A stretch of DNA of 38,131 nucleotides from a virus, in the IMG/VR virus record IMGVR_UViG_3300009024_000032, positions 1 through 38,131 of that record; one strand, written 5' to 3'. The position numbers and the translations under genes were made by a program. Under the pieces are notes generated by a model. The model did no database searches. It was not told where the DNA came from and worked only from the letters and a program-made list of their open reading frames with translations. This document shows, in pieces, positions 2,451 to 35,168 of this stretch. Numbering within the stretch: position 1 is the first letter of the stretch; each line of letters opens with the position of its first letter.

Positions 2451-3020
2451 ATGAAAATTTTAATAGATCTAAAAAAGGATTTACATCCTATTGGGCAACT
2501 TATCCTCCATCTTTTACACAATTCTGAGTATGACGAGATAGAAAAACATTTTCAAAACACTTACCCTCAATATATTAGAGGGTTAATCAAAATGAAATAC
2601 ATCTTGAATACTGATAGTGACTCTATAAAACTGTCAGAGTTAACTTTAAATAAATCTAAACTAAAAGCTATACTAGGAGAGGTAGAATCTTCTTCCATGT
2701 GGATAGACTCTTATAGAGAATTATTTAGAGGCAAAAAGACAGGGGCTATGGGTACTAAGAGTGCCTGTATTAAGAAGATGGACAAGTTTATACAAGAGTT
2801 TGGCTACAATAAAGAAATAATTTTAAGCGCAGCAGAAAGATACATCGCTACTAGTAGGGACTATGCTTATTTGCAGCAAGCAGATTATTTTATTTATAAG
2901 AGCGAATCTTTTATGGGCTCTTCTGTAGAGAACTCTAAGTTGGCTACTTACTGCGAAGAGATAGAAATGCTAGATAATAATCAAATAACAGACGGAGCAT
3001 GGAACATCCAAAGCATTTAA
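2451..3020 (+). CDS. hypothetical replication-associated protein (possible helicase loader/partner)
   Basis: A 189-residue, mostly helical protein directly upstream of the DnaB-like helicase, whose start lies inside this gene (22-base overlap). The N-terminal 70 residues alternate helices and short turns, as in winged-helix domains. The C-terminal part (YNKEIILSAAERYIATSRD, then YLQQADYFIYK) resembles the helical module of DnaD-like or helicase-loader proteins. The frame is open back to a GTG at 2394, but that start would overlap a possible promoter box and add a basic leader, so I chose the ATG at 2451. The helicase next door lacks the usual N-terminal domain, so a partner or loader encoded here is plausible. 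The functional call is an inference. Confidence 0.6.
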   Translation: MKILIDLKKDLHPIGQLILHLLHNSEYDEIEKHFQNTYPQYIRGLIKMKYILNTDSDSIKLSELTLNKSKLKAILGEVESSSMWIDSYRELFRGKKTGAMGTKSACIKKMDKFIQEFGYNKEIILSAAERYIATSRDYAYLQQADYFIYKSESFMGSSVENSKLATYCEEIEMLDNNQITDGAWNIQSI

Positions 3021-4084
3021 GTACGCCTCTCTGGGATCAATTAGAGGCCCAAATAAACTTAGGTATGCAAGGAAGGAATAGAGGCCTTCCTATGGGCTTT
3101 AAAAAGCTTTCTAAGTATATTTCTAACATTCAACCAGGTAGATATGACTTGATAGGGGGTGCTACGGGTACAGGTAAAACTGCACTAGTAGACTCTGCAT
3201 ATATGTATAACCCTATTAAGTATATCACAGCGGAAAAAGAAACTGATTTTAGTATCAAGATTCTATATTATAGTATAGAGATTACTCCCCTACAGAAAAT
3301 AGCCAAGATGGTGTGTAGGAAGTTATTCGAAGACCATAATATATTAGTTGACTCTGAGAGTTTATTTTCTAGAGGCGATAGGTCTTTACTAGACAAAGAC
3401 GTTGCTAAGAAAGTATTTGCTACCAGAGATTACTTTGAAAAGATGCTATCTGATCATGTTATCTTTTATTCTGCAGCCTCTCCTGATTATGTATGGATGA
3501 CTGTTAAAGATTATGTAGAGAAGAACGGTACAATTATCCGCAACTCTAACAAAATGATTCAACAGTATATCCCGCACAAACCTAATGAGATTGTTTTATT
3601 AATTATTGATCACATATCTCTAATAGATAAAAACTCAAAGGATTCTAATAAGAAAGAGGCTATAGACAGGTTGAGTAAAATGCTGGTACAATTTAGAAAC
3701 TTATTCAACATAAGTCCAGTAGTAGTATCTCAGTTTAATAGGGGTATAGAAGGTATGGATAGAAAAAGATTAGATTCTTTAGAGCCGCAGCTCAGTGATT
3801 TTAAAGACACTGGTTCTACTCAAGAAGATGCTAATACTTCTATTGCCTTGTTTAATCCTTTTAGATATGGGATAGAAAAGCATAATGGTTATGATATTAA
3901 AAGACTGAACAGAAACTATAGATCACTAAGTATCTTAAAGAACAGAGACGGTCAAGATAACTTATCATTAGGCTTATTTTTTATGGGGGCAAATGGATTA
4001 TTTCGTGAGTTACCTCCCTCACAAGAATTTATAAGTAATCCAGAATTATATAATAAACTTTTAAAATACTCAAATGGCAATTAA
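2999..4084 (+). CDS. DnaB-like replicative helicase (RecA-fold ATPase)
   Basis: A 361-residue replicative helicase of the DnaB/gp41 type, which unwinds DNA 5' to 3' as a hexamer at the fork. Walker A is GGATGTGKTALV (residues 53-64). Walker B is IVLLIIDHISLID (Asp 204). The sensor-like motif VVSQFNRG (Ser 244 to Arg 248) corresponds to DnaB SQLNR, and the following LSDFKDTGSTQEDAN matches the DnaB 'L.DLR.SG.IEQDAD' segment. It is shorter than bacterial DnaB (about 470 residues) and lacks most of the N-terminal collar domain, as in several phage helicases. The start overlaps the upstream gene by 22 bases and the end overlaps the next gene by 11, so translation is probably coupled. Confidence 0.92.
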   Translation: MEHPKHLSTPLWDQLEAQINLGMQGRNRGLPMGFKKLSKYISNIQPGRYDLIGGATGTGKTALVDSAYMYNPIKYITAEKETDFSIKILYYSIEITPLQKIAKMVCRKLFEDHNILVDSESLFSRGDRSLLDKDVAKKVFATRDYFEKMLSDHVIFYSAASPDYVWMTVKDYVEKNGTIIRNSNKMIQQYIPHKPNEIVLLIIDHISLIDKNSKDSNKKEAIDRLSKMLVQFRNLFNISPVVVSQFNRGIEGMDRKRLDSLEPQLSDFKDTGSTQEDANTSIALFNPFRYGIEKHNGYDIKRLNRNYRSLSILKNRDGQDNLSLGLFFMGANGLFRELPPSQEFISNPELYNKLLKYSNGN

Positions 4085-19030: not shown

Positions 19031-22000
19031 TTAGTCCTCTGAAAATAAGGAAGAAGAGATTCCGTAAATAGGATTAAGGCCTTTTTCAAGTACCATAGAT
19101 TCTAAGTAACTATTCTTTATTTGGGGGGAACCTAGCTCATATAAGTTTTTAGCATATACTGAGCGTATTAATTGTTTCTCGAATCTAGTCATTCCTTTAT
19201 ATTGACCTCTCTCTAAGTCATCCCAATTAAGCATCCATTGTAAATCTGAAAATGATTCTACAACATTAATACCTGCGGCAGGAGATTTAAGTACTTCCAG
19301 TAATGTAAAAGGAGACCAGAAAGCTCTTTGCTCTAGTAATACCCTTGAAGTTTGATAGGCGCTGTACTGTAACCACCACATATCATCATCATCTTCTGAG
19401 GCTATTGCATTTACTGCAGCTCCTAGTATACTTAATACACTTAATACACCAAGGTCTGCTGATACCCTTAAAATATTAATCTTTTGATAGTCTTTTAGCT
19501 TTCCCCAAAATGCCTTTATCAGAGCAGGATTTCCTTGTGCAGCTGCCTTAATTGCCGATTTTAATGCTTTATCTGTAAGCAGGCTTCCAATAGTCCTGTA
19601 AGTACCTTCTTCTGTTAATCCAGTTAAAGGGGATATACCCCTTCTGTGAAATCTATACTCTATTCCATTAATTAACCATCCTCTGTGCATACCTCCAAAA
19701 CGAGACAAAGCATTACGATTAAAGGTATTTCTATCTAAACTACCTTGTTCTCCTTTTAATCTAGGAGAAAGCTCTGCTACTATATCTCTAAATCTAAATA
19801 GATCTTTTTTATCTACTCCTGATACAACTCCGTCTTTGATTTTTATCTTATTATATAAAGAGTTGGTTCTATTAGCTTTCCATATTGCTTCAGTAGCTCC
19901 TTTTTGCGCTAGGTATTCTTCTTTCAAGTAAAGCTTGCCATCAATATATCTTAAGTTATCAGCTATTGCTATTGTTAAGGTAGCTTGACGAGTGCCGTCT
20001 AAAACTGAGTAAGGAGCATACGCCAAATCATCTAAGGTTATCCTTGCTCCTTTTGCTTTAAACCTTAATAATTCAGCCTCATTATCAAACCCAGTTCCCA
20101 CATACTTCATTACAAGGGAAAGCTTATTTGTTTTAAGCCTCTTCCCTACATCATTCATAATGCCTGGTAAATTCTTTACTGCTTCTGCCTGAGAATATCC
20201 TATAGAGTCTTTTGCTATTAGCCTACCTCCTATGCGCTCTATTGCCTGATCTATGTTACCTTTTATAAAACCAGCTAGTGCAATGGGTACACCAAATGCA
20301 AGATTACTTTTTAGAATAAAACTGTATAAACCCTTTAAGATTTTATCAACTTGTACTTCTTTTCCTGCAATCTTTACACTCATTGATTTTTCAGACTCCC
20401 CAAATAAGTAAATATCTAAGAAGTTTTCTAACAGCGCATAAGTTTCAGTAGCCTCTCCAGTTACATCTGATTTATTTCCTTTCTTAGTTTTAAATTCTTG
20501 TCTAGCTACTGCTCTTTGTAATGCTTCTAGCTCTGGACGAGAGTTTACTGATTCCTTGTACCCAGTAGACATTTTTGCAAACTTTATCATACTTGCAGTC
20601 AAGTCCTTACTCAGTATTTTAGGATCTATTTTATTAGTGTAGTATACAGGTATAAACTTATTTTTTGTGCCTCTGTAATTAGTAGCCTCTGCGCCATAGG
20701 TATCATCATCCCCGTATCTTAAAACACCTTGCTTTGCTTTTTCCTTCAAGCTATTGTACCTACCATCCCTCACTAACTCTGCTTTTGAAGCTCCTACTTG
20801 GGGCATCATAAACTTTTTATCTCCTGTTCTTTGTCTGAAAGGAAGATTCTCTTTATAAGTAGCCATAGTATTTATGTACTCCTTATAATAAGCGTTATCT
20901 TTTATGCTATTGTAGGTTTTGTTTAGTAGGATATCACTTAGTCCCTCTTCTGTGTTATCTATTATCTCAATCTTATACTTAGTTTGAGATCCTTCCTTTT
21001 CTCCTACTTCTACAACTTTTCCAAATTTTCTAGAAGGGTAATTTTTTTCAGTATAAAAATTTACTTTGTCTCCTACTTTAAAATTTTTACTATTAGACTT
21101 AGTAATTGTAGTACCTACATAGGTTCTTTCTAAAGTCTCTATTTCTTCTTTACTTAAGTTTCTTATAGTTTTATATCCACTAGTATCATAGTACTTTTTA
21201 CTAAAGTCTCTCCAAACTTTGCTATACTTATTAAGCATAGCCTTTTCTTCATTAGATTGTTCAGATTCTTCTTTTTCTTTAATTAGTTCAATTTTAAGTC
21301 TAAGATCGTTGTAATCAGTAATTCCATCAGAAGCGAACGTTTTTACTAAAGATTCTAATACCTCTTCGCGGGCTTGTTGAAGTTTTCCTTGATTATACTT
21401 AGATACAACATTACCTGTAAGATTTCCTTTAGAATCTTTTTCAAACATACTGTCAAAATTAAAACCTGCTCTTTCTGATTCTTCGTAAAGTCTTTGAAGT
21501 TTAGCTTCTACCTCTTCTCCTACACTGTTCTTTTCATTATCAGTTCTTTTAAGTATTTTATAAGCTGCTAATAATAATTTATTATCGGTTTTTCTAAGAC
21601 TCCTTATAGCGCTAGTGTAGCTAAGTAAATCTGTTCCAGCTTCTGCTTTTAAAATTTTTACTATATCTCCTGGTTCATAATACTCTAGTTCACTACTAAG
21701 TATTTGATCATATGCATGTAAATCTAAGTCTTTATATATATTAGATAAATTCCCTATAGACCTAGTTGCATTAGTTATAAGACTATTTAATTCAGCGAGT
21801 TCTTCCTCTGATAAATTAGTTTCTTCACTGCCTACTATTCTCTGTAGGTTAAGTCCTAACTCAGCAATCATGTCTTCGTGAGCGCCAAGAAACTTAACTC
21901 CTGTGTTAATTTTATCAATATCTAAACTGCCGCCATTTGATTTCATAGACTCAGAGTCTTTACTAAACTCCTCTATTACTCCATCTAAATATTGCATGTA

Positions 22001-23791
22001 ATTTAACAGTCCTTTTGCAGTCTGTTTATCAGCAAGGTTTTTTATTATTTCATCTCTTTTTTGCTCTAATCGTCTTCCTTGTAAATCAGTCTTAGCGCCT
22101 CTTCCTATACTTTCATTTATTACTCTAACTTGATTGTTAAGGTCCGCAATGATATCGTCTCCTAGTTTTTCTTTAAAAGCCTCAAGGCTAGCTTTCTCTA
22201 AATTAAAAAACACACTTGAAGGATTATTATATGGATCGCTAACTTCTTCTAATCGTTCCCCTGATCTTATCTTAGTGGCCAGTGCCCCCATTGTTTCTCT
22301 TACTCTACTCTGTAAGTAGAAAGAATTAGGAGTTCCAAACAGCGCAGTAATCTTATCCCATATCCTCATTATTAAAGATCTAGTACTACTTGGCGCATTA
22401 GAAGGATCTTTAAGTAATTCTTTAGTGAGAATCTTACCTAATATTTCTATCTTAGAATGAGCATCAGCCTCTGAGTCATCTAGCCCTAGTTCTCTTTTAT
22501 ATGCTTCAAAGTAAGTAGCGTAGTCTTGCTTGTATTCCTCTGTTTCTTCTATTACTTTTAGTAAGGGGGCAACTAACTCGTGATTTAGTCCTAGCATTGC
22601 AATAGCAATGTGTCCTATTTCTTCCCCTAATACTTCTACTTGCTCAGGTAATGTCATAGAGGAGTCAATGCCCACTATCTTATTCATGGCGTCTGCTACA
22701 CCTGCTACACCTGCAGCATCACTTTTAATTCGTCCTTGTTTCTTGAGTACGTTTATTACTTCTGATAATCCTTCTACCCTTATGCCATTTATTTCTGCAA
22801 ATTGTGTAAGAATCTCTTGAAGCTGCTCTGCCTTTTTTAAGGTCATCTTAGGGGCGTTTGCCGCTTCTCTTGCCCTTTCTGCCACTCTTATACCTTGAAG
22901 CCTGCTAAGAGCCTCTTTTGTTACTCTAGTCTCATAAGCTCCAGTAGTTTCATCATTAGCCTTATCTAAAGATTCATGGGCTTTTTCATGTAGTAAAGCA
23001 AAAGTCAAGAACTCTTCAAATGATTTAAATATATCTTCTGGTAATGCGACTGCTCTACTGCCATCTGCTAAAGGTGCAGGGGTAGTCCAAGATTTATCCT
23101 CATACTTCTTTCTCATTTGGGCAGCCACTACTTGAATTTTCTCCCCTTTATTTACATTACGCATTGCTACCTTAATGCCCCTAGTAGAAGGTATCTCATC
23201 TAAGAACTCTATCATAGTCCCTTCAAACTGAAGACTATTTTTTATGTCGCTCATAGAGAGCATAGACTTTACCTGAGACCCTGTGATGTTAAAGAATAAC
23301 TGAGTCTGTTCAAACTTATCAGGGAACTTTATGTAATGTACTTGCCTGTCAGTACTAGTCTCTGCACCTTTCGCCTCATGTACTGTTATACCATCTAAGT
23401 TATTATACTTCTTCTTTAGTGCCCCTACAGCATTAACTGTATCCGTGTAAGCATTTGTATTAGCAGCTACATATAATCTCTTTACTCCATCTTTACCAGT
23501 TCCAAAGTTTACTGCTCTATAACTTAAAGCTTTGTTTCTTTGGATTAGTACTTTCTTTACATCATCTGATGATAACTGATCGTTTGTAGTATTTGCAGGA
23601 TTAATTATGTCAAAAGGATTTTTAGCGCCTACTAGGACTTCAGCTACACTAGGAAATTCATCAATAGACTTTTTATTCCTAGACTGCCACACAACTATTC
23701 TATGCTCTAAAGCAGTGGCTGATCTATTAAAGCTTCTTAGTAGTGTTCTAAACTCAACACTACTTTTATTTATACATCCTTTTTTAGCCAT
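19031..23791 (-). CDS. giant virion/transcription-module protein (1,586 aa) with HExxH and EExxH motifs
   Basis: The last of three giant leftward genes. The N-terminal third has LLHEKAHE (His 268, Glu 269, His 272), a zincin metalloprotease-like HExxH. A second site, GEEIGHIAIAML (Glu 390, Glu 391, His 394), lacks the first His and looks degenerate. The middle (about 500-1000) is charged and coiled-coil-like (KEKEESEQSNEEKAMLNKYS). Hydrophobic segments lie near residues 1155-1180 (LAFGVPIALAGFIKGN) and 1445-1470 (LGVLSVLSILGAAVNAIA), followed by EDDDDMWWLQYSAY, suggestive of membrane insertion. It overlaps the RNA polymerase gene by eight bases (ATGGCTAA), so translation is probably coupled. 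In crAss-like phages the genes flanking the virion RNA polymerase encode co-packaged cargo or ejection proteins, which I take as its likely role. Confidence 0.78.
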   Translation of the reverse strand: MAKKGCINKSSVEFRTLLRSFNRSATALEHRIVVWQSRNKKSIDEFPSVAEVLVGAKNPFDIINPANTTNDQLSSDDVKKVLIQRNKALSYRAVNFGTGKDGVKRLYVAANTNAYTDTVNAVGALKKKYNNLDGITVHEAKGAETSTDRQVHYIKFPDKFEQTQLFFNITGSQVKSMLSMSDIKNSLQFEGTMIEFLDEIPSTRGIKVAMRNVNKGEKIQVVAAQMRKKYEDKSWTTPAPLADGSRAVALPEDIFKSFEEFLTFALLHEKAHESLDKANDETTGAYETRVTKEALSRLQGIRVAERAREAANAPKMTLKKAEQLQEILTQFAEINGIRVEGLSEVINVLKKQGRIKSDAAGVAGVADAMNKIVGIDSSMTLPEQVEVLGEEIGHIAIAMLGLNHELVAPLLKVIEETEEYKQDYATYFEAYKRELGLDDSEADAHSKIEILGKILTKELLKDPSNAPSSTRSLIMRIWDKITALFGTPNSFYLQSRVRETMGALATKIRSGERLEEVSDPYNNPSSVFFNLEKASLEAFKEKLGDDIIADLNNQVRVINESIGRGAKTDLQGRRLEQKRDEIIKNLADKQTAKGLLNYMQYLDGVIEEFSKDSESMKSNGGSLDIDKINTGVKFLGAHEDMIAELGLNLQRIVGSEETNLSEEELAELNSLITNATRSIGNLSNIYKDLDLHAYDQILSSELEYYEPGDIVKILKAEAGTDLLSYTSAIRSLRKTDNKLLLAAYKILKRTDNEKNSVGEEVEAKLQRLYEESERAGFNFDSMFEKDSKGNLTGNVVSKYNQGKLQQAREEVLESLVKTFASDGITDYNDLRLKIELIKEKEESEQSNEEKAMLNKYSKVWRDFSKKYYDTSGYKTIRNLSKEEIETLERTYVGTTITKSNSKNFKVGDKVNFYTEKNYPSRKFGKVVEVGEKEGSQTKYKIEIIDNTEEGLSDILLNKTYNSIKDNAYYKEYINTMATYKENLPFRQRTGDKKFMMPQVGASKAELVRDGRYNSLKEKAKQGVLRYGDDDTYGAEATNYRGTKNKFIPVYYTNKIDPKILSKDLTASMIKFAKMSTGYKESVNSRPELEALQRAVARQEFKTKKGNKSDVTGEATETYALLENFLDIYLFGESEKSMSVKIAGKEVQVDKILKGLYSFILKSNLAFGVPIALAGFIKGNIDQAIERIGGRLIAKDSIGYSQAEAVKNLPGIMNDVGKRLKTNKLSLVMKYVGTGFDNEAELLRFKAKGARITLDDLAYAPYSVLDGTRQATLTIAIADNLRYIDGKLYLKEEYLAQKGATEAIWKANRTNSLYNKIKIKDGVVSGVDKKDLFRFRDIVAELSPRLKGEQGSLDRNTFNRNALSRFGGMHRGWLINGIEYRFHRRGISPLTGLTEEGTYRTIGSLLTDKALKSAIKAAAQGNPALIKAFWGKLKDYQKINILRVSADLGVLSVLSILGAAVNAIASEDDDDMWWLQYSAYQTSRVLLEQRAFWSPFTLLEVLKSPAAGINVVESFSDLQWMLNWDDLERGQYKGMTRFEKQLIRSVYAKNLYELGSPQIKNSYLESMVLEKGLNPIYGISSSLFSED

Positions 23792-26700
23792 TTCCTAAAT
23801 AATTACAGGTTCTCATATAATTCATAAGTGCATCTTGCTCGGCAGGAGGTATGTTAGCCCATTGCTCTTCTTCATAAGCTTGAGCCTGCGCAGCATTTAA
23901 TTTATCTTGCTCAGAATATGCTTCAAAGGTAACTTTTTTAGTAACTGTAGATTTTTCCTCTTCTAGAAATAGGGTATTATATTCTAGTAGATCTTCTGCG
24001 GAAGGCTCACTTTCTTCAGTAGTTCCTATAAGCGGTTCAAACTTATTAAGAGGCTCCTCTGTAAGTTTTCTTTTACCTTCAGGAAGTTCAAGCGATTCTT
24101 CTGCAGGGGTATAGTCTTGTCTGTAGAACTTAGTTCCTAAAGAGGACACTTCTATATAAGTTATCTTATTATCCTCCCCCTCATCTAAAGCAAACAGCCT
24201 ATCTCCTTCTTTATCTCTTTTTATTAAAAAGTCTACAGCGTTTCCTATAGTATTTTTATAATAAGAAGGAACTTCCCCATTTACTTTTTTTATAACCAAT
24301 GTTCCATCTTCTTCTTTGGCAGCCTCGTCTGCTTTTAGTAAGAAGCTGTTGTCTTCTTTAAATACGTTCCTTACATAGAAAGACATAAAGTTATCGAACG
24401 GTACATCTACATTATTTAAAAGAGATTCTAATCTTCCTTCTATACTTTGTTCAGATCCAAAAGTTTCATTAAAAGCATCAGGGTGAATTAAATTTATAAT
24501 GCTAAAAGGACTAGGAGTATATCCTGTAGTCTTTAAGGCATAAGCTAAAAGATTACGGGCAAAGCCTGCATTCTCTTCGTTACTCATCATCGCTTTCCAC
24601 TCTTCGTGGGCAAGGTTTATTTGGTCTTTGCTAATTGCACTTCTATTTACTACAATCCTGTCTTCTTCTAAACTAGGATCAACTTTCTGAGTTTCTAACC
24701 TTAAGGCGCTAATCAAAGTAGGGTAAGACGCAGCGTAGTCTCTTTTAAATTCTATAAAAGCTTTATGAACGCTTTTCATAACTACTTCAGTAGAAAATCT
24801 TGCTAGCCCATCATGATTAGCTATATGATAAGTCTCAGCATGCTTAAACATATTTGAGATAACCCTATCATTTAAAAATGCATCAGCAGGCACTGTTTCT
24901 AAAAACTTTGTTACTAGTCCTTCAAATGATTCATTAAAGTAAGGGAAAAACTTTGCGTAGGCCTCTCTTACAGGATCATGAGCATTTTCTTTATACATTT
25001 TAAGAATACCATCTTCACTAAAGAATTTTCCAGTGCCTTGTATTGAAGTAAAGTTGTCTTCTGTTACTTTCTCTACCATTTTGTTTTGAAGCATTACCCC
25101 TGCAGCACTTGTAGAAGCAGCTGAGGCATCTAACTTAGTACCTCTTATTACTGTAGAAAGATCTGCTCCAACTTCAGATAACTTAATAAAAGTATTTAAA
25201 AGTTCTTCTTTTTCTATACTTGTGTTATTTTTAAACGTAAACCCACCTTGACGTGTACTATCAAATAAATCCTCTAAATTTAGGTTAGTATAGCCTCCAG
25301 AAGATTCTGATCCTTCTTTTCTCTCGCCTTGTAGCTCAGTAAGTGCTTTTTGAGCTTCTACTAAAAAGGGTTTACCTGTCGTTTTACTAGAATTATATAA
25401 CTTTATTGCTAAAGGAGTAGAAAATAATGCAACAGTGTAGTCTATAGGAAGTCCTAGTCTTATAGCTGCCATGTAAGCATCTGCAGTATTTATATTTAAG
25501 TTAATAAATGCAGCTAAAGGATCTTTAGTATTGTCTACAATAGCAGTAGCAAATTCTTGTAGCCTATAATCTATATCCATGTTATTGCTACTAAGAGACT
25601 TATACTCTTGCCCATTAATAGTTATAGGATCCTTAAGCTCTAGTGAAGTAGATTTGGATTTTATATTGTTTATTAAATGATTTACTAAAACTCCAATTAG
25701 GTTACCTCCTGATTGAATTCTATTATAAAACTCTAACTGAGTACTAGGATTTGCTATGTTATATTTTTTAGCTTCTTCTTCTTCTATAATCTCTCCTTTT
25801 TCTTTTATAGACATACCAGATAGCTCCCCTGCACTTTTAGCTTTATGATCGCTTACATTATTTTTTAGGTATGCAGTGTAGGCAGCTTCCTTTAAATTTT
25901 CAAAATGTCCAGGCCCTATGGACTCTTCACCATGACTTTTTAAATTAGAAGAAATTGCATAGTATATAGAAATCAATCCATTTTCTCTTGCTTTTCTAGA
26001 TTGATTTGGCCCTTTATCTACTTCAAAAGACTCGTCTACTACGACCTTATCTATTTCTTTTTGTGTAGTGTTATGAGGAGTAAAGACAAACATTTTATCA
26101 ATGTCAAAGTCAAGACCTGTTCTACTAGTAATCCCTTTAGGTAAAACAATATTTCCTCCTAAGTTGGCTGGAAGAAATCCTTTGACCTCTATAGCAACTA
26201 TGGAGTATTTAGATTCTGTAGGAGTACGGAATCCTACTAACTCCAATACTTCAGGATCTACCTTACTCATATCTACAGTTCCATCTTCTTTTACAGGGAG
26301 ATCTAGTAAGTCTTTTGACCAAGCAGGAAGATAGGCTTCCATTGTTAGCTTATTAGCCGTCTCATCAACTTTATATTCTAAGTTATCTGATAAACCATAA
26401 GAAGTAAAGTTTACAAACTGGCCTCCTGGCAACTTTTGCTTAAATACCCTACTCTTAAATAACGCTGCTACTACAGACTCTGCCTCTTTAGATCCATAAC
26501 TAGAATATAGCTTAGGTATTATTTCTTTATCAGAAACCTCTATACTATCATTTATACTATTAATAATAGCTGTAGGAGCCCCCCTGTTAGTTAATACTTT
26601 TACAATCTCTTGTCTAAGTACTTGATAGTCTTCTTCAGAATTATTTATTATGCTTGTTAGTCTTTCATTATCTTCTTTAAGGTTAGCCTCTGTAAGTTTA

Positions 26701-29700
26701 TTTAATAAAACTAATAAGTCAGCTCCTTTTACATTTTCTCCTTTTAAATTATAGTTAGCTTCAAGGGCTATATTGTTCATCTGATGAACTCTCATCTGAG
26801 AACCTATTCTTGCGACATGCTCATACCAGTGTGATGGAGTGTTTTGAGCAAGTAGCATATCCTTTAGATTAACCTCCATAATCTGGTCAACTCCAGGATT
26901 TCCTACTTTAACGGCACTTGAGAAAGCTATTAAATCTGCTTTTTCTTCATTTACATACATTTCATTGTATGCTTCTGCTAGATTACCAGCATTGCCTCCT
27001 AGAACTACTAGCTCAGGAGTAAGTACTTGTATAGAGTTTTTAAGTTGTACGGGAGATGATGTACCTATAGATATTCCGTCATCATTCTTAACTTCTCTTT
27101 CTGTAAACATAAAAGGCTTAAACCCTTTAAATAAATCTTGATTTTCTTTTGCAGTTAATGGATTTTTAAATGCAGTGCCTGGTTTCCAATTTTTGGCAGC
27201 TTTAAGATATTTACCATAAGCAACTTCTTTATCCGCATCCCACTGTTGTATGGCCTCCATATACTCCTTGTACTTAGCCATAGAAATAAAGGTCGCTCCA
27301 TCTGTAGTATTATTCTCAGCTTTTTCTATAAGATCTTGTGTAGTCTTGTCTTTTTTTCCTGCCTTTTTGAGAGCAACTTTTTCTTCACTACTATTTTCTG
27401 CTAAGACATCTGCTTTTACTTTAACTTTTGCAGTTATAGATTCTGCAGGAGAAGTACCATTAGTGTTGCCTTGTTTTACTCTTTTGAAAAAATCTGCAAC
27501 TCCTTTGTAGTAAGCAGGCGATTTATGTACTAACTCTGTTATTTGAGTGTTGTGATAAAAGGCGTTGTAGAAATAGTTTTTAGCAGCTTCTTTTTCTCCT
27601 GAAGGTATGAACTTACTGTCCTTTAGACTTCCTAAATCAGTGAACCCAGAAATATTAAATTTCTTTACTTCTTGTCCTGTAAGTTCTAAATCGCCCTTCC
27701 CATTTAATATCCTAATAGACTCTCCATTGGCTAACTTTATTAATCCTCCTGTATTACTATTTGCAAATTCCGTAAAACTTTTTAGAGTTAGTCCTTCCTT
27801 TCTACTTTCCCATACTTCTCTTCCGTCGGAGATTCTATCTGTTTGCCCAAATTCTTTTAACTTAGATACAAAAGTTTCATATTCTTCTTCTAGATAATTT
27901 CTTATAGCATCTTTAATTTGCCCTTCATTTTCTTTAGTTATTTTAAACTTTACGTTATTTAAGAAAGGGAAGTATTGAAAGTTTTTTCTATTTTTTTCTA
28001 TGTTTGATATGTTTCTTACTCCTGAGTTGTTTTCATGTGCAAACTCGTCAATTCTTCTTTGCTCTGCAATTGCTACTTGGGCTAATTTTGTTACTGCACC
28101 TTCTGTAGTCTGCTTAGGAAACTGGAGATAGTATAACATTTTACTGTCTGAAGGAATAGGAATAGAGAATAACCCCATATTGTTTTTCCCAAATTTATTA
28201 TTAAAGAAAGCATTCATGTTTGCCCTATTAAGCTCTTCGGGTGATATGTCCAGATAAGATCTTTTTCCTGACTTTTCTGTAGCTGTATTTTCAAGCAGGT
28301 AAATGTCTATATCTTTTAAGTCACCCATAATAGGCATGTCTGCTAAATAACCTTTAACATTGTTTTTAAATTCTTTAGGATTTTTTTGTATAAGAGTTAT
28401 TAGTTTAGATAAGTAGTTTGATTCTACTAAAGAGTACTTAGGCTTTTTATTAGCTCCAAAAAATACAGGTTGTACTTTAAGGTCAGATATTTCTGCGTAG
28501 TCTTTAGCAAAATTTTCTAGTGTGGATCTAACGCTTGTTCCTATTTTAGGTAATACAGAAAACGGATTTCTTCCATTGCTCATATCAGCGTATATAGAAT
28601 TAAGCTGTAATAGAGTTCCTTCATTAAAATTAGTTGCTTTTGATTTAAGGCTAGGAAATAAACTAGAAAAGCCCATAAGTGCATCTAGCCCTTCTCTATT
28701 TAAAGGAATAAACGATCTTTCTAAAAGATTTGCTAGTTTATCTAGAATAGGACTTAATGTTTCATCTGAAGCATCATTGTTACTAAAATCCCTAATTTCT
28801 TTTCTTATTTCTGTAAATTCCTCAAGCGCTTCTTTTCCTTTAGCTTCATTGTTTAAGTAAGGATTACTATCTACAGTATAAGCAGAAGCAAGAGTATCTC
28901 TAACAATTGTTTTTAAAGTCTTTCTATTAGCTAAGTATATCTTTCCTTTATTATCTACGCCAAAATATTTTATAAATTGGTTATCCCCAATGCCTGTCCA
29001 AAGAGTAGATTGGATTTCTTTTTCTTGTGCTAATTGTAAAAGCTGAGGTACCCAAGGTTGGTTAAGTTTTTCAAGCTTCTCTATCATATGCCCAACACTA
29101 TGTGAGTTAGAAATACTTGACTCTAATGAAGATATAACTGCTTCTCCATCATAGTATTGTACAGTACCCATAATAGGGCTATAGGTTTTGTTTCCTTCTT
29201 TATCTAACTTAGGAATTGTATGTAGCTTTGTTCTTACAGTACTAGGTATTCTTTGCCTGTTGTCTTCCTCCATTCTACTTCTAAAGAAGTTATCTTTTTC
29301 CTCGGCCTCTTCTGCGCCTTCAAAAGCTTCTTCTATATCTACATTATCTTCTAGAGTTACAATCTCTTGTATGTTTGGATTTATTACTATTCCATAATCT
29401 CTTAAAGAAAATATTGAGTCCGCTAACATAGCAGACATTTTTCCTTTCTTAGAAGTTACTAGTTTACCGTCTACCTTTTCAAAAGAAAAATAATTAAGTA
29501 AGAAATTGTTTATTTCTACCTTATCAGCCTCTTCGGTAGAATTGTTTCTTTCCTTTATCATATGATTGAATATCGTATCATTTAAAAATAAAACGACATC
29601 CCCTCTTCTATTTGTTGCAGCTTTTCTAAGAGCTTGTGTACTTGTTAGTCCCTCGTATCCGTCTTGTGCTTTAACAGTGGCTAATACTCTACTGACTAAA

Positions 29701-32700
29701 TGCCTGTATAAATCTTTGTACTCTTTTACATGAGCATTGCTAATACCTTCTGACTTTACCTCAGAAGCCATAGGTTTAAATACTTTAAACTCTTTCTTGA
29801 ATTGTATCTTGTTTCTAAACTTACCTATTTCTATATCTCCAAATAAACGATCTACGTTAAGAGGAGAAGTTCTATTGAATAGGTGATTTATAGCATCCTT
29901 TAATGCGTACATAAATCTTTTTAATGCACCTTTTAGCCCTGATAGTGCTTTATTAGAAATCATTAGTACCCTGAACTCTTCTGCAAGTTTTTCTTCTATC
30001 TCTAAATCTGTAGAAGTGGTATCATTATATCTATTCCTAGCATCTGCTAAGACTTGTTCTCTTTGTGTACTTGTTAGCCCAAGAGTAAATACTGCGTGAA
30101 ACGCCTCATGATATCCTCTGCCTTTAGTTCCTTTAGTTCTTAAGTAAATACCTGCCTCAGTAAATAGGCCCTCTAATACCTGCCCTTTACTCTTTACCTG
30201 TTGTACAAGACCAGCAACTGTAGGAATATCTCCTACAAGCTCTCCTTCATCTACATAAGTTTGTACAAGAGCGTCTCCTCCTAGTACATTAGAAATAAAG
30301 TTTATTTCATCCTCTACGTCTTCTGCAGAGTTTACTTCTTCCTCAGATATAACAGAAGTCTTAAAATCGCCACTTATATCTAATGCGCCTGAATCTTCGA
30401 CTGCACTATCTAATTCTTTTGCGGCTTCTTCACTTTGCTGTGTTGATTGAGCTTCTTTAGCTTCTGCTATTAATTTTTTATATTTTTCATTAATTGTTTT
30501 CCTTTGTGATTCTTCACTTTCAAGAATCCTTTTAACCTGTTCTTTTATTTCTGGTATCTTTTTTTCCAGTCTTTTTAGAGGAACACTTTCTGTTTCTGTT
30601 TTCCATTTAGCCCCAGCCATTCCTGGATATGATACATAATCTCCCTTAACATACATTCCAACTTCTTTAAAAGAAAAATCTGGATTTAATCTAAAATAAT
30701 AGCCCTCGTTACTAGTTTCATAATAACTCCCTTTGTCTATAGTACCTATATTATCTAATTTTTTGTCTCTCTCTGTTTCTAATTCTTTAACTTTAACCTC
30801 TGCTGTTGTGCCTTTTATAAAACTTACTAAATCTTGGGTTTCTCCTTGTTCTACAGTTTCTTCTGTTTTTGTATTTATTTCTGTTTGTATCGGAGATGTA
30901 AAGTTTGCAGCATCATAGTCTTGCAGTGCTTTATTTGCAGCAGCTAACTTTGGTCTTGTCTCCTTTATATTCTGAGGAGTCATACTGTCTTCAATAGACT
31001 CAACTTCAGCGGCAAGTGCTTCCCTCTCTGCCGTAGTTCCTGTACCCTCTATGACATCGTATATAGGTCGCTCCACCTGCTTTCCGTTTACTAAACGCTT
31101 TGGTTTTGAAACCCTATCAATAATCATAACACCCTTCGGAACTTGGTCGCTTTCTCTTCTATTTCCAATCTCTATAATTTCACTATCTGATACTTCTCTT
31201 CCAATCTCCCCATCAAACACATACCCCTCAGCTTCAAGCTCTGCCTTAGACGCTCTATACCACGCCATGTCTTCCTTACTTACAGATGCTGTACTTGCAG
31301 TTGCATTGTAAAGGAAGTTAGTGACTGCCTTAACCTTACCTCCTATATCCGTAGCAGAAGCAAAATCAGATTTAGCTTTATCAATTCTTTTTTGTAGTCT
31401 ACTACTTTCTTTACTAGCTTGTTCTGTAGTAGCCCCTGTTGCAGTCTCGTCTGCTATAGTTTCCTCAGAGCGCTCACTTGGTTGTGTAACAGGTGCTGCG
31501 GACTGGACGTTTACTTTATAGCTTGGGCTATGGATTCCTACTGATACATCCATATTATGGTCTAGATACTCTGCTACATCTGTATTATAATTACCAGAGT
31601 TTATCTTAGCTTTATCTATAAAAGCAATTGTTCCCTTTCCTTCTTCTGTACTTAAAAGAGCTTCTTTTAACTTCTCTTGTTCTGCCTCTTGGCTATTTAC
31701 TAGTACTACGCCTTCTTCTAGTTCTATTTTAAAGTTACTCTTATCCCTATTAATGTGAATTAAGTTCTTTAATTGACTAAGAGCTTCTTTTGCTACCTCT
31801 GGGTTACTATCATATAACCCGTCTACTAAATTTGAAACTGTGTTTTTTAGACTGTCAACTTCTCCAACTTTTTTGGTAAATAATCTAACAGGAAAATATC
31901 TACCATCTGGAGCAGGTACTAATGCATAAACATACCCTCCCTTTAAAATAGTTTTCCCTTCTTTATTTTTACCAGCAGCAGCAAGATTTTCAGAATTTTT
32001 TATAACTAGATTGTCAGGTATTAATCCTGCCTCTTCAAGTCCTGCTAACTTAACATTTCCGTTAGTTACTACTGTGGTTATAAGTTTTACGTTTGGATAT
32101 TTTTCAAGAATAGTATTTAAATCTGCAAATCCTCCGTTAGGTAAATTAAGTATTCTTCCAGGTAGCTTGCTTTTAACTTGTCCTTTTTTCTCAGAAGTAA
32201 ATCTATCTCCTGCGTCTCTAGCTCCAGAGTTTTCATACTCTGATTCTATAGCCTTTCTAAGTTCAGGAGCTACTTTCTTACGGTTTTTTCCTTTACCTCT
32301 ATATTCAGGTATAACTCCTATAAATATTTCTTCCTCGTTTACGTTAACAAACATCTCAATTCGATATGTACGCTTACTGTCGCCCCTATCGCCTTGATTA
32401 TATTCATCTGTACCATCTATTACATAGGATACTTTTTCTCCCTTAACCTTAAACTTAGGATTTAGATGCTTGTCTATACTTTTGTCTCCTTTAGTCTGGA
32501 AATCATAAAATATATGATTTAAGGGGGTTCCGTCGTCTCCTCTTTCTACTTCTCCTTCTGGCCCCGCAAGGTGGAGTAGATTTCCTACAAAGGATTCATC
32601 AGTAGATGTTTCTATTGTTTCTGCATTGGAGTCAAACGTAGAAGTATTTGTTTCTTTTGTGTTTACGTCTGGAGCATCTTCTACTTCTTGTCCTACTTCT

Positions 32701-35168
32701 TCCGATAATTTTTGATTTAGTAATGAGTTAAGAAGGTCTTTTCTAGGATCTGGGTTATTAGGCGCTTGTAGTTCATTGTAGTTTGTTACTAGTTGTTCAG
32801 CTGCTTTTTGAGGATCGTTGTCTAGAGTAATATTTAAAGTGTCCCCAAATTCAGGTATGGCCCTATGGTGAGCTGCTGCGTTTCCTTGTAGTAAGGTAGC
32901 TAGGTTTTTTATTTTATCTTCTGGGCTTAATTCTTTATTTTCAAGTATAGCCTTTACCTTAGGCATTTCTGTAAGAAGAGCAATTGTTGTAGTGCGGTTT
33001 GTATTTTCAGGTTCACCGCCTATTTGTTCTTTTTCTTCCGTTTTAATAGCCTCTACTTCTTCAACTGTAGTTGCTTTTTGAGTCCTATCACTATACCCAG
33101 CCACTGTACCCGCTTGTTCTTTAGCTTTTGCTTCCTCTCTTAATTGAGCTTTGACTACTTCATTTTCTTCAAACCCTTTGGCTGTTTGAAGTTTACCTAC
33201 TTTAGATCTGTATGACTCAGAAATCATCCCTTGATTTAAAGCTGTAAATTGTTTAGACAATAAGCTACCGTCTTTCAGGGTTTTTTTAAATGGTTTGTTA
33301 TCTGCTTTTATAGTCTCATCTAACTGTAATTTTCTTTCTTTTAAACTATCTAAAAACTTTTGTTCTGCGGCATCAGGCTTACCTTTTTTAGCTCCTAAAA
33401 ATCGTATGATAGCTTCTCTTTCTATATAATTTCTATGGTTAGTTACCTCTGGACTTGTTATGCCTCCTTCTTTTTCTAATTGTTGATAGGTATTATCTAT
33501 TTCAGTATTTATTATTCTTCCATCTTGAATAGCCTTTTGTGCTATAAAAGAATAAGTAGCTATGTCTGCTAGTTGACTAGGGGTATATGCTGCGTTACCT
33601 TTCTCATCTACCTCTGATGACATCCGCAGTACTTGCTCATTTAAACCATTAATCATTTCTACAGTCTGAGTAAACTCGTCTGTAGTCTCTTCTTGGGTTT
33701 TTGAGAATTTAGTTAAAGACTTTATTACATTATTTAAATTTCCATTTAAGTTAATGTCTCTTTGTATTATAGCGCCTAGTCCAAAGTTTTTCACTCCCAG
33801 TGCGCCATCTTTTTGCTTAAGTTTAGACAAAGCCTCATACTGTAATAATTTGTCATTGACTTTACCTGAAGCTTTATTAAAGACAGCTCCCATAGTATGG
33901 AATCCTCCTCCCATTACTGCCCCCATCATAGCAGCAGATTGTAACTCCTCACTTGCTAAGTATCCATCAAGTCTTTCAGAGAACCCTTCTTCAAACATTT
34001 TACCCTCTCGTAAAGCTTCTTGTCCTACTACTGCTTGATAAGTTTCTTCAAGAGCCTCTGACCCTGCTTGAAAAGCTAATTTTCTGCTACTGTTCCATCC
34101 TTTCTTAGCGTAGTTAGCTAACTTACTTGCTTTATTAGCCCCTCTTGTTGCAGCTCCTCCTACCTTAAATAGTTTATTTAACCCTCCAAATGCCATAGCA
34201 TATTGAGCATAGTCCATAGTACCTGCTGCCCAATTCCAAGTAGTAGTTTTAGCAGCGGCATCTGCAGCTTTTAAATAATCTTCTTTATACTTGGAAGTAA
34301 GAGCTGACTCAGGATTAGCTAATAAAAATGCACTTTCTGCTTTTGCCTGATCATAAGACATGTCATAGTTTTCCATTAGAGACTCTGTAAGAGATTGGTC
34401 ATAAGTCCCAAACCCCTCTAACATATTCTCTGCGTGTCTAGACGATAAAGTGGCTGCAGTCGTTCCTGCAATATTACCCGCCTTGCCTACTATATTAGTG
34501 GCTTTTATTTGTGCTTTAGTTGCAGCTGCTACTTGTTCTGCAGTTCTTATGGCTCCCGTTACTTTAGCAGAAGCTTTACCTATCTTAGAAAGTCCTACTA
34601 ATCTTGAAGCTGCTTTAGTAGCTAGAAAACCAGCTCCTCTGCCTATAGCCATTCCTGGTATTAATAAAGAAATAGTAGATCCTATAGAGCCTGCATTAGT
34701 TGCCCAAGACATTGCATTAAAGGGATCAAAGTTTTGATCTTCTTCTCTTGCGTAGATAGGGTTAGACTCTATCATAGACTCTTTAGTCTGCCTTGCCCAA
34801 GTAGATAATGAGTTTTGAGTATCTATAAAACCATTACTATCTTCTTGCCAAACATTGCCAAATAAATTAGCAACGCCTGTTCCTATATATCCTATGCCCT
34901 CAGGTATTTCCATTAACGCTGTAGCTCCAGCATTTTGAAATGCATTTTCTACTACATCCCAACTTGATTGATTACTTCGTCTTAAAGCATCAACATCTTC
35001 TGTAAATAAATTTAGACCTTGATCATACTTAGCCTCTGGCGCAGGCGCCATGTCTGTAGCTATAGTAAACGAGGGGGCTGCAGGCTCTACATAGTTACCT
35101 TCTGAATCTACCCTTAGGGCTTTTAAAAATCCTCTATAGTCTCCTAATTTTACTTCTTCTTCTGGCAT
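23784..35168 (-). CDS. giant virion-packaged DNA-dependent RNA polymerase protein (3,794 aa)
   Basis: A protein of roughly 420 kDa. The RNA polymerase signature is GLDFDIDKMFVF: Asp 3020, 3022 and 3024 form the DFDxD metal-binding loop. It is preceded by GFRTPTESKYSIVAIEVKGF and IVLPKGITSRTG, the 'R.P......FLP....I..P..I....G.DFDxD' block of crAss-like phage polymerases. The N-terminus has Gly/Ala-rich hydrophobic segments (about 90-105, 153-193 and 410-430) like ejection proteins. Around 1687-1691 lies GYHEAFHAVF (HExxH), followed near 1722-1730 by EEKLAEEF, which could supply the third zinc ligand of a zincin. Acidic low-complexity linkers near 826-850, 1222-1256 and 1570-1600 separate modules. 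By analogy with crAss-like phage phi14:2, it would enter the host with the DNA and transcribe early genes. Processing into smaller pieces is possible. Confidence 0.87.
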   Translation of the reverse strand: MPEEEVKLGDYRGFLKALRVDSEGNYVEPAAPSFTIATDMAPAPEAKYDQGLNLFTEDVDALRRSNQSSWDVVENAFQNAGATALMEIPEGIGYIGTGVANLFGNVWQEDSNGFIDTQNSLSTWARQTKESMIESNPIYAREEDQNFDPFNAMSWATNAGSIGSTISLLIPGMAIGRGAGFLATKAASRLVGLSKIGKASAKVTGAIRTAEQVAAATKAQIKATNIVGKAGNIAGTTAATLSSRHAENMLEGFGTYDQSLTESLMENYDMSYDQAKAESAFLLANPESALTSKYKEDYLKAADAAAKTTTWNWAAGTMDYAQYAMAFGGLNKLFKVGGAATRGANKASKLANYAKKGWNSSRKLAFQAGSEALEETYQAVVGQEALREGKMFEEGFSERLDGYLASEELQSAAMMGAVMGGGFHTMGAVFNKASGKVNDKLLQYEALSKLKQKDGALGVKNFGLGAIIQRDINLNGNLNNVIKSLTKFSKTQEETTDEFTQTVEMINGLNEQVLRMSSEVDEKGNAAYTPSQLADIATYSFIAQKAIQDGRIINTEIDNTYQQLEKEGGITSPEVTNHRNYIEREAIIRFLGAKKGKPDAAEQKFLDSLKERKLQLDETIKADNKPFKKTLKDGSLLSKQFTALNQGMISESYRSKVGKLQTAKGFEENEVVKAQLREEAKAKEQAGTVAGYSDRTQKATTVEEVEAIKTEEKEQIGGEPENTNRTTTIALLTEMPKVKAILENKELSPEDKIKNLATLLQGNAAAHHRAIPEFGDTLNITLDNDPQKAAEQLVTNYNELQAPNNPDPRKDLLNSLLNQKLSEEVGQEVEDAPDVNTKETNTSTFDSNAETIETSTDESFVGNLLHLAGPEGEVERGDDGTPLNHIFYDFQTKGDKSIDKHLNPKFKVKGEKVSYVIDGTDEYNQGDRGDSKRTYRIEMFVNVNEEEIFIGVIPEYRGKGKNRKKVAPELRKAIESEYENSGARDAGDRFTSEKKGQVKSKLPGRILNLPNGGFADLNTILEKYPNVKLITTVVTNGNVKLAGLEEAGLIPDNLVIKNSENLAAAGKNKEGKTILKGGYVYALVPAPDGRYFPVRLFTKKVGEVDSLKNTVSNLVDGLYDSNPEVAKEALSQLKNLIHINRDKSNFKIELEEGVVLVNSQEAEQEKLKEALLSTEEGKGTIAFIDKAKINSGNYNTDVAEYLDHNMDVSVGIHSPSYKVNVQSAAPVTQPSERSEETIADETATGATTEQASKESSRLQKRIDKAKSDFASATDIGGKVKAVTNFLYNATASTASVSKEDMAWYRASKAELEAEGYVFDGEIGREVSDSEIIEIGNRRESDQVPKGVMIIDRVSKPKRLVNGKQVERPIYDVIEGTGTTAEREALAAEVESIEDSMTPQNIKETRPKLAAANKALQDYDAANFTSPIQTEINTKTEETVEQGETQDLVSFIKGTTAEVKVKELETERDKKLDNIGTIDKGSYYETSNEGYYFRLNPDFSFKEVGMYVKGDYVSYPGMAGAKWKTETESVPLKRLEKKIPEIKEQVKRILESEESQRKTINEKYKKLIAEAKEAQSTQQSEEAAKELDSAVEDSGALDISGDFKTSVISEEEVNSAEDVEDEINFISNVLGGDALVQTYVDEGELVGDIPTVAGLVQQVKSKGQVLEGLFTEAGIYLRTKGTKGRGYHEAFHAVFTLGLTSTQREQVLADARNRYNDTTSTDLEIEEKLAEEFRVLMISNKALSGLKGALKRFMYALKDAINHLFNRTSPLNVDRLFGDIEIGKFRNKIQFKKEFKVFKPMASEVKSEGISNAHVKEYKDLYRHLVSRVLATVKAQDGYEGLTSTQALRKAATNRRGDVVLFLNDTIFNHMIKERNNSTEEADKVEINNFLLNYFSFEKVDGKLVTSKKGKMSAMLADSIFSLRDYGIVINPNIQEIVTLEDNVDIEEAFEGAEEAEEKDNFFRSRMEEDNRQRIPSTVRTKLHTIPKLDKEGNKTYSPIMGTVQYYDGEAVISSLESSISNSHSVGHMIEKLEKLNQPWVPQLLQLAQEKEIQSTLWTGIGDNQFIKYFGVDNKGKIYLANRKTLKTIVRDTLASAYTVDSNPYLNNEAKGKEALEEFTEIRKEIRDFSNNDASDETLSPILDKLANLLERSFIPLNREGLDALMGFSSLFPSLKSKATNFNEGTLLQLNSIYADMSNGRNPFSVLPKIGTSVRSTLENFAKDYAEISDLKVQPVFFGANKKPKYSLVESNYLSKLITLIQKNPKEFKNNVKGYLADMPIMGDLKDIDIYLLENTATEKSGKRSYLDISPEELNRANMNAFFNNKFGKNNMGLFSIPIPSDSKMLYYLQFPKQTTEGAVTKLAQVAIAEQRRIDEFAHENNSGVRNISNIEKNRKNFQYFPFLNNVKFKITKENEGQIKDAIRNYLEEEYETFVSKLKEFGQTDRISDGREVWESRKEGLTLKSFTEFANSNTGGLIKLANGESIRILNGKGDLELTGQEVKKFNISGFTDLGSLKDSKFIPSGEKEAAKNYFYNAFYHNTQITELVHKSPAYYKGVADFFKRVKQGNTNGTSPAESITAKVKVKADVLAENSSEEKVALKKAGKKDKTTQDLIEKAENNTTDGATFISMAKYKEYMEAIQQWDADKEVAYGKYLKAAKNWKPGTAFKNPLTAKENQDLFKGFKPFMFTEREVKNDDGISIGTSSPVQLKNSIQVLTPELVVLGGNAGNLAEAYNEMYVNEEKADLIAFSSAVKVGNPGVDQIMEVNLKDMLLAQNTPSHWYEHVARIGSQMRVHQMNNIALEANYNLKGENVKGADLLVLLNKLTEANLKEDNERLTSIINNSEEDYQVLRQEIVKVLTNRGAPTAIINSINDSIEVSDKEIIPKLYSSYGSKEAESVVAALFKSRVFKQKLPGGQFVNFTSYGLSDNLEYKVDETANKLTMEAYLPAWSKDLLDLPVKEDGTVDMSKVDPEVLELVGFRTPTESKYSIVAIEVKGFLPANLGGNIVLPKGITSRTGLDFDIDKMFVFTPHNTTQKEIDKVVVDESFEVDKGPNQSRKARENGLISIYYAISSNLKSHGEESIGPGHFENLKEAAYTAYLKNNVSDHKAKSAGELSGMSIKEKGEIIEEEEAKKYNIANPSTQLEFYNRIQSGGNLIGVLVNHLINNIKSKSTSLELKDPITINGQEYKSLSSNNMDIDYRLQEFATAIVDNTKDPLAAFINLNINTADAYMAAIRLGLPIDYTVALFSTPLAIKLYNSSKTTGKPFLVEAQKALTELQGERKEGSESSGGYTNLNLEDLFDSTRQGGFTFKNNTSIEKEELLNTFIKLSEVGADLSTVIRGTKLDASAASTSAAGVMLQNKMVEKVTEDNFTSIQGTGKFFSEDGILKMYKENAHDPVREAYAKFFPYFNESFEGLVTKFLETVPADAFLNDRVISNMFKHAETYHIANHDGLARFSTEVVMKSVHKAFIEFKRDYAASYPTLISALRLETQKVDPSLEEDRIVVNRSAISKDQINLAHEEWKAMMSNEENAGFARNLLAYALKTTGYTPSPFSIINLIHPDAFNETFGSEQSIEGRLESLLNNVDVPFDNFMSFYVRNVFKEDNSFLLKADEAAKEEDGTLVIKKVNGEVPSYYKNTIGNAVDFLIKRDKEGDRLFALDEGEDNKITYIEVSSLGTKFYRQDYTPAEESLELPEGKRKLTEEPLNKFEPLIGTTEESEPSAEDLLEYNTLFLEEEKSTVTKKVTFEAYSEQDKLNAAQAQAYEEEQWANIPPAEQDALMNYMRTCNYLGNG

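What the first reader, a model, noticed from the sequence alone, without database searches (positions are those of the whole stretch)
23784..35168. 3,794-residue multi-domain virion RNA polymerase with an internal zincin site
One reading frame joins hydrophobic ejection-like segments, an HExxH site with a likely third ligand (HEAFHAV near 1687, EEKLAEEF near 1725) and the DFDID RNA polymerase core (3020-3024). Acidic low-complexity linkers near 826-850, 1222-1256 and 1570-1600 separate the parts. This looks like a polyprotein that could be cut, perhaps by its own protease, during assembly or ejection. The crAss-like phage phi14:2 polymerase is known to be virion-packaged; a built-in metalloprotease with a processing role is, as far as I know, not established.
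Basis: partly seen in the sequence, partly recalled or inferred. Interest (0 to 1): 0.75.

Follow-up and report, generated by a model that had tools for sequence, protein, structure and literature searches.

The report
Phage virion RNA polymerase with zincin hinge
A giant protein of a crAss-like phage joins a cell-entry module, a zinc-protease domain and the RNA polymerase that such phages carry in their particles; related protease domains sit beside this polymerase in most relatives and, more distantly, in phage N4's unrelated virion polymerase, but what they cut, if anything, is unknown.

Summary
The 3,794-residue frame is on the minus strand (35168 to 23784). HEAFH (1687-1691), EEKLAEEF (1725) and DFDID (3020-3024) are where stated. 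Profiles show a fusion of three known crAss-phage parts: the gp47/g067 cargo module, a zincin, and the phi14:2 gp66-type virion RNA polymerase (PDB 6vr4, 1217 bits).

The zincin is not chance. The HExxH plus downstream-Glu site is near-invariant across 26-35 homologues, and the predicted fold's top matches are all zinc metallopeptidases. It occurs in other fused giants and, as the gp47 C-terminus, in split-gene crAss001. A homologous second zincin lies in the RNAP-associated protein downstream; here it reads EExxH. The family is distantly related to the zincin of phage N4's unrelated virion RNAP.

The polyprotein-cut-during-assembly reading is weakly supported. crAss001 keeps an intact zincin although its RNAP is a separate gene, and its virion gel shows bands near full-length gp47 size. 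N4's zincin-bearing polymerase is packaged unprocessed. Four fused lineages lack an intact copy. A role after ejection is likelier but unshown. The 'virion RNAP plus zincin' idea is published for N4; I found no text describing it for crAss phages.

The parts
30417..35168 (-). P0001 residues 1-1584: N-terminal cargo/ejection module, homologous (residues about 50-720) to phi14:2 g067 and crAss001 gp47
   Evidence: Iterated profile from phi14:2 g067 reaches the window protein, E 1.3e-120
30297..30416 (-). Acidic flexible linker, residues 1585-1624, just before the zincin
   Evidence: 14 of 40 residues D/E; a disorder-prone stretch precedes the zincin in most fused relatives, mean rank 0.87, 23 of 29 above 0.8
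29679..30266 (-). Zincin domain (z1), residues about 1635-1830
   Evidence: Profile hits in about 50 ORFs; AlphaFold model with pLDDT about 95 over the two active-site helices; top structural matches are all zinc metallopeptidases
30096..30110 (-). HEAFH 1687-1691, HExxH zinc-binding motif
   Evidence: Coordinates checked; H1687 and H1691 at least 90% conserved and E1688 invariant in 26 sequences
29991..29993 (-). E1726, predicted third zinc ligand
   Evidence: At least 90% conserved
24609..29633 (-). Virion RNA polymerase, residues 1846-3520
   Evidence: Profile without phi14:2 hits PDB 6vr4 (phi14:2 gp66) with 1217 bits
26907..27119 (-). Conserved lysines K2684, K2710, K2754 of the polymerase core
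   Evidence: Invariant columns of alignment A3
26097..26111 (-). DFDID 3020-3024, catalytic metal-binding motif
   Evidence: D3020, F3021, D3022, D3024 and K3025 invariant in 19 polymerases
23787..24608 (-). C-terminal tail 3521-3794 of the fused protein
   Evidence: Outside the polymerase profile
19031..23791 (-). P0002, 1586 aa, g065/gp49-like RNAP-associated protein
   Evidence: Profile matches to phi14:2 g065 and crAss001 gp49
22247..22699 (-). Second zincin-like domain (z2) in P0002 with EEIGH (390-394) in place of HExxH and E449
   Evidence: Unified with z1 by profile; E391, H394, E449 invariant in 30 z2 domains, first position His or Glu
35234..38098 (-). P0003, 954 aa, upstream gene at the position of the g068/gp46 cargo gene
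   Evidence: Gene order only; homology not tested

Best explanation
The protein is a naturally fused crAss-phage cargo protein: an N-terminal ejection module, a flexible acidic linker, a gluzincin with a complete predicted active site, and the double-barrel virion RNA polymerase. It is packaged and ejected with the DNA, and the polymerase transcribes early genes; these steps are shown for relatives, not here. I think the zincin is a working protease that travels with the polymerase and acts after ejection, most likely on the phage's own cargo: cutting near its own hinge or a neighbouring cargo protein, to free or switch the polymerase from the entry apparatus. Architecture and active-site conservation are shown here; protease activity, timing and target are inferred.
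For: Polymerase identity: 6vr4, 1217 bits. Zincin: near-invariant YHExxH plus E1726 in 26 sequences at 18-28% identity; all ten best structural matches are zinc metallopeptidases or their relatives, PPEP-1 Z 5.9, PprI/IrrE Z 5.9, lethal factor Z 5.4. Position: in fused relatives z1 lies 4-140 residues before the polymerase and mostly after a disorder-prone stretch. Gene breaks fall on either side of it: after it in crAss001, before it in L030, so it behaves as a hinge module of the cargo block. z1 is absent in several lineages whose cargo and polymerase genes are split, such as the phi14:2 clade, L040-44 and L039. The same zincin family occurs in N4's unrelated virion polymerase (z2 profile versus N4 family Prob 84, E 7e-6). 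Relatives gp47, gp49 and gp50 are in crAss001 virions (PMC10172136).
Against: No cleavage data of any kind. crAss001 retains an intact z1 although its polymerase is a separate gene on the other strand, so release of the polymerase cannot be its only job. Fused lineages without an intact z1 exist (L008, L014/L017, L035, L038/L043). In N4 the zincin (C1) belongs to a C-terminal domain that inhibits the polymerase, and no cutting is reported (PMC12633501). Structural Z scores are under 8. Scans of the window proteins in Pfam, NCBIfam and PHROGs gave nothing.
Confidence: 0.45

Rival explanations
1. Polyprotein processing during assembly: the zincin cuts the fused chain before or during packaging, so that virions hold separate ejection and polymerase proteins.
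For: Fused chain, flexible linker before z1, and loss of z1 in several split-gene lineages. Phage P1 DdrB, which carries a zincin of the polyvalent-protein kind, is processed before packaging (PMC5512222).
Against: crAss001 virion gel bands at 150, 270 and over 300 kDa, with gp47 (262.5 kDa), gp49 and gp50 detected (PMC6235969; PMC10172136); N4 vRNAP is packaged unprocessed (PMC5512222). The band-by-band assignment for crAss001 is not given in the text, so this is inference.
Confidence: 0.15
2. Host-directed effector: the zincin is delivered with the polymerase and cuts a bacterial protein, for example a transcription or defence factor.
For: z1 is kept intact in the crAss001 clade where it is no longer attached to the polymerase; the closest folds (lethal factor, PPEP, IrrE) are target-specific proteases; this role was also proposed for such domains by Iyer et al. 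(PMC5512222).
Against: Placement is fixed within the cargo/polymerase block across the order, at the module boundary, which fits a block-internal role better.
Confidence: 0.25
3. Non-proteolytic docking or regulatory domain: the zincin fold holds or inhibits the polymerase and the metal site is structural or residual.
For: N4's C1 zincin domain contacts the polymerase within an autoinhibitory C-terminal domain (PMC12633501). Degenerate copies exist: L008 (WExxR, Thr for Glu), L035 (HExxE); z2 has Glu for the first His in the window and many relatives.
Against: In z1 the catalytic Glu is invariant in 26 sequences and both His plus the third Glu are kept in nearly all; a purely structural site would not need E1688.
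Confidence: 0.15

Closest known systems
phi14:2 gp66 virion RNA polymerase (PDB 6vr4) with neighbours g067 and g065
   Same: Polymerase homologous over nearly its whole length; same gene order; N-module homologous to g067
   Different: In phi14:2 the cargo and polymerase genes are separate and g067 has no detectable zincin; g065 has its own HExxH domain
crAss001 gp47 + gp50 + gp49
   Same: gp47 carries the homologous intact zincin at its C-terminus; gp49 has the same EExxH second domain
   Different: Three genes, two on the opposite strand; here the gp47 and gp50 equivalents are one chain
Fused giants of Suoliviridae (cr4_1, cr1_1, cr53_1, cr114_1, cr118_1)
   Same: One 4,270-4,950-residue chain with the zincin directly before the polymerase
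   Different: Some need TAG read as an amino acid; second zincin mostly keeps HExxH; about 18% identity in the polymerase
N4 gp50 virion RNA polymerase
   Same: Giant virion polymerase with membrane module, flexible linker, and a zincin of the same distant family (PMC12633501)
   Different: T7-type single-subunit polymerase, unrelated to the double-barrel type; its zincin lies after, not before, the polymerase
P23-45 gp96 tape-measure-fused virion RNA polymerase
   Same: Giant chain joining a DFDGD polymerase with a metallopeptidase domain (PMC10770324)
   Different: Tape measure protein of a long-tailed phage; contains no HExxH and no match to this zincin profile

Membership tests
crAss-like (phi14:2 gp66-type) virion RNA polymerase | Sequence homology over the polymerase | tested here: met
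   6vr4 hit 1217 bits with phi14:2 left out of the profile
crAss-like (phi14:2 gp66-type) virion RNA polymerase | DxDxD motif and invariant core lysines | tested here: met
   D3020, D3022, D3024, K2684, K2710, K2754 invariant in 19 sequences
crAss-like (phi14:2 gp66-type) virion RNA polymerase | Packaged in the virion and active on early genes | not testable with these tools
   Reported for phi14:2 and detected in crAss001 virions (PMC7886860, PMC10172136); not for this phage
Zincin metallopeptidase | HExxH plus downstream Glu ligand conserved in homologues | tested here: met
Zincin metallopeptidase | Zincin fold | tested here: met
   Model whose top matches are zinc metallopeptidases, but best Z only 5.9 and Foldseek alone gave no significant hit
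Zincin metallopeptidase | Zinc binding and proteolysis | not testable with these tools
   Needs the purified domain
Polyvalent-protein MPTase of virion RNA polymerases (Iyer 2017; N4 C1 domain) | Profile relation to the N4 MPTase | tested here: inconclusive
   z1 versus z2 Prob 94.8 and z2 versus N4 family Prob 84.4, but z1 versus N4 directly only Prob 13, though in register: an indirect link
Self-cleaving virion polyprotein | Cleaved products in virion or infected cell | not testable with these tools
   Published data on relatives lean against assembly-time cleavage

The most novel reading that the evidence does not exclude
One zincin family has been joined independently to two unrelated virion RNA polymerases (crAss double-barrel and N4 T7-type) because it performs a shared step of protein-polymerase delivery, such as cutting or releasing the polymerase from the entry channel once inside the cell.
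Probability: 0.25. Interest if true: 0.8.

Novelty: new variant of a known kind. Interest (0 to 1): 0.5.

Why it matters
Virion RNA polymerases of crAss-like phages are a hallmark of very abundant gut viruses, yet how such giants are threaded into a cell and switched on is open. A conserved zinc site beside the polymerase, shared with N4, gives a specific residue to test. crAss001 (intact z1) and DAC15 (z1 absent, z2 EExxH) are cultured relatives in one family, a ready natural contrast.

Tried and rejected
Pfam, NCBIfam and PHROGs with the window proteins: nothing significant; two z1 relatives hit phrog_87 'metallo-protease', best E 8.5e-5. phmmer of the polymerase alone against PDB: nothing, the profile was needed. 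Foldseek on the z1 model: no significant match. Idea that each genome keeps at least one intact zincin: by a rough hand count 4 exceptions seen against about 6 expected if independent, so not significant; dropped. P23-45 gp96: no HExxH, no match. g065 versus N4 C2 domain homology: hhalign Prob 0.2, same as the reversed control. dN/dS between window and L002: too few differences in z1 to use. A collection scan with the z1 alignment was not possible, no conserved block long enough. Linkers before z1 are enriched in Pro-Pro (2.2 versus 0.5 per 1000 residues), but proline-rich linkers are common, so no cleavage site is claimed.

Full report
Observation. The window holds a 3794-residue frame on the minus strand, 35168 to 23784. 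Flanking it on the same strand are P0003 (954 aa, upstream) and P0002 (1586 aa, downstream, overlapping by 8 bases). The frame is also continuous in contig L002, which is over 99% identical for most of its length, so the fusion is real.

What it is. tblastn and iterated profiles divide the chain into known crAss-phage parts. Residues about 50-720 match the N-terminus of phi14:2 g067 and crAss001 gp47. Residues 1846-3520 match the phi14:2-type virion polymerase; a 19-sequence profile built without phi14:2 finds PDB 6vr4 with 1217 bits. D3020, D3022, D3024, K2684, K2710 and K2754 are invariant. P0002 matches g065/gp49. A polymerase tree puts the window with L004 and the crAss001/DAC15 clade (support 1.0 for that group; the window's exact place inside it is unresolved).

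The zincin. Residues about 1635-1830 form a domain found in about 50 ORFs of the fetched loci. In 26 sequences at 18-28% identity to the window, Y1686, H1687, H1691 and E1726 are at least 90% conserved and E1688 and A1729 invariant. The spacing and the E-x-x-A-[ED] pattern resemble gluzincins (own knowledge of thermolysin-type sites). The AlphaFold model reaches pLDDT about 95 over the two active-site helices. Foldseek alone found nothing significant, but on re-alignment the best ten chains are zinc metallopeptidases or close relatives of their fold: PPEP-1 and PPEP-3, IrrE/PprI and a mycobacterial IrrE-like regulator, lethal factor, with Z 5.0-5.9. The Z values are modest; the agreement among the hits and the conserved ligands carry the argument. 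A profile also aligns weakly but in register with PPEP (E 0.16).

Distribution. In 58 loci, 35 have cargo module and polymerase fused, 29 of these with intact z1; 23 are split, 8 with intact z1 (labels set by hand). On the tree the fused/split state changes about 5 times (shuffled minimum 12) and z1 status about 8 times (shuffled minimum 9). Fused giants are thus common and not new: Suoliviridae cr4_1, cr1_1, cr53_1, cr114_1 and cr118_1 have them, and giants up to about 6000 aa are noted in a review (PMC10136315). Gene breaks fall after z1 (crAss001) or before it (L030). The same holds for z2 at the polymerase/g065 border: L009 has it on the polymerase ORF, L027 in an ORF between the two. In 23 of 29 fused proteins a disorder-prone stretch precedes z1 (mean rank 0.87); the lineages are not independent. 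The split crAss001 group has it too in most members.

Second zincin and the N4 link. A domain in the g065-like protein is homologous to z1 (hhalign Prob 94.8). In the window it reads EEIGH, first His replaced by Glu, with E391, H394 and E449 invariant over 30 z2 domains. Its model also matches zincins (IrrE Z 7.1, lethal factor 6.9) and, lower, the solved N4 gp50 zincin domain (9pnr residues 2147-2348, Z 5.1). Fourteen N4-type sequences, N4 included, all carry HExxH; the z2 profile aligns with their profile at Prob 84.4, E 7e-6. Ten control blocks of the polymerase alignment, run with the z1 profile, stay at 0.8% or below. z1 against N4 directly is weak (Prob 13).

Mechanism. Established elsewhere: crAss001 gp47, gp49 and gp50 are virion cargo (PMC10172136), and the phi14:2 polymerase is carried in the virion and transcribes early genes (PMC7886860). 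Inferred here: the fused chain is cargo, and its zincin is catalytically competent. Timing: Iyer et al. proposed in 2017 that such domains in N4-like polymerases self-process, while noting N4's is packaged unprocessed (PMC5512222). crAss001 virion bands at 150, 270 and over 300 kDa (PMC6235969) fit near-full-length gp47, gp49 and gp50. Both lean against cutting during assembly. A target among the phage's own cargo is my preferred guess from the fixed position at module borders; a host target is the main rival, and a docking role as in N4's autoinhibitory C-terminal domain (PMC12633501) remains possible.

Novelty. 'Virion polymerase with a built-in zincin' is a published idea for N4-like phages. 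In the crAss texts I could read or search no zincin is mentioned, but figures and two key papers were not available. The crAss arrangement, with a zincin hinge before a double-barrel polymerase and a second EExxH copy, is therefore best called a new variant of a known kind.

Noticed in passing
window 23200-24000: Against near-identical contig L002 (98-100% in 300-base windows elsewhere over 24 kb) a sharply bounded island of 74-88% identity covers the end of P0001 and start of P0002: looks like a recombination tract at the gene junction.
   Followed up: partly
window 22976-22990: P0002 has a further HExxH, HEKAH 268-272, in a stretch related to one just before z1 in L058/L060 (E 3e-11), possibly a third, mobile zincin.
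   Followed up: partly
window 22610-22624; crAss001 gp49 (L067), DAC15 gp77 (L076) and others: The second zincin shows a consistent HExxH-to-EExxH change with the other three site residues invariant, suggesting a retained but altered metal site rather than decay.
   Followed up: partly
L076 (Bacteroides phage DAC15): No HExxH in any of its three large transcription-block proteins, although it is close to crAss001: a natural contrast for testing function.
   Followed up: no
L078 N4 gp50 residues 2376-3500 and P0002 about 790-920: The g065 profile gives its best, still insignificant, score to N4's C2 domain rather than to decoys (4.5 bits); hhalign negative.
   Followed up: partly
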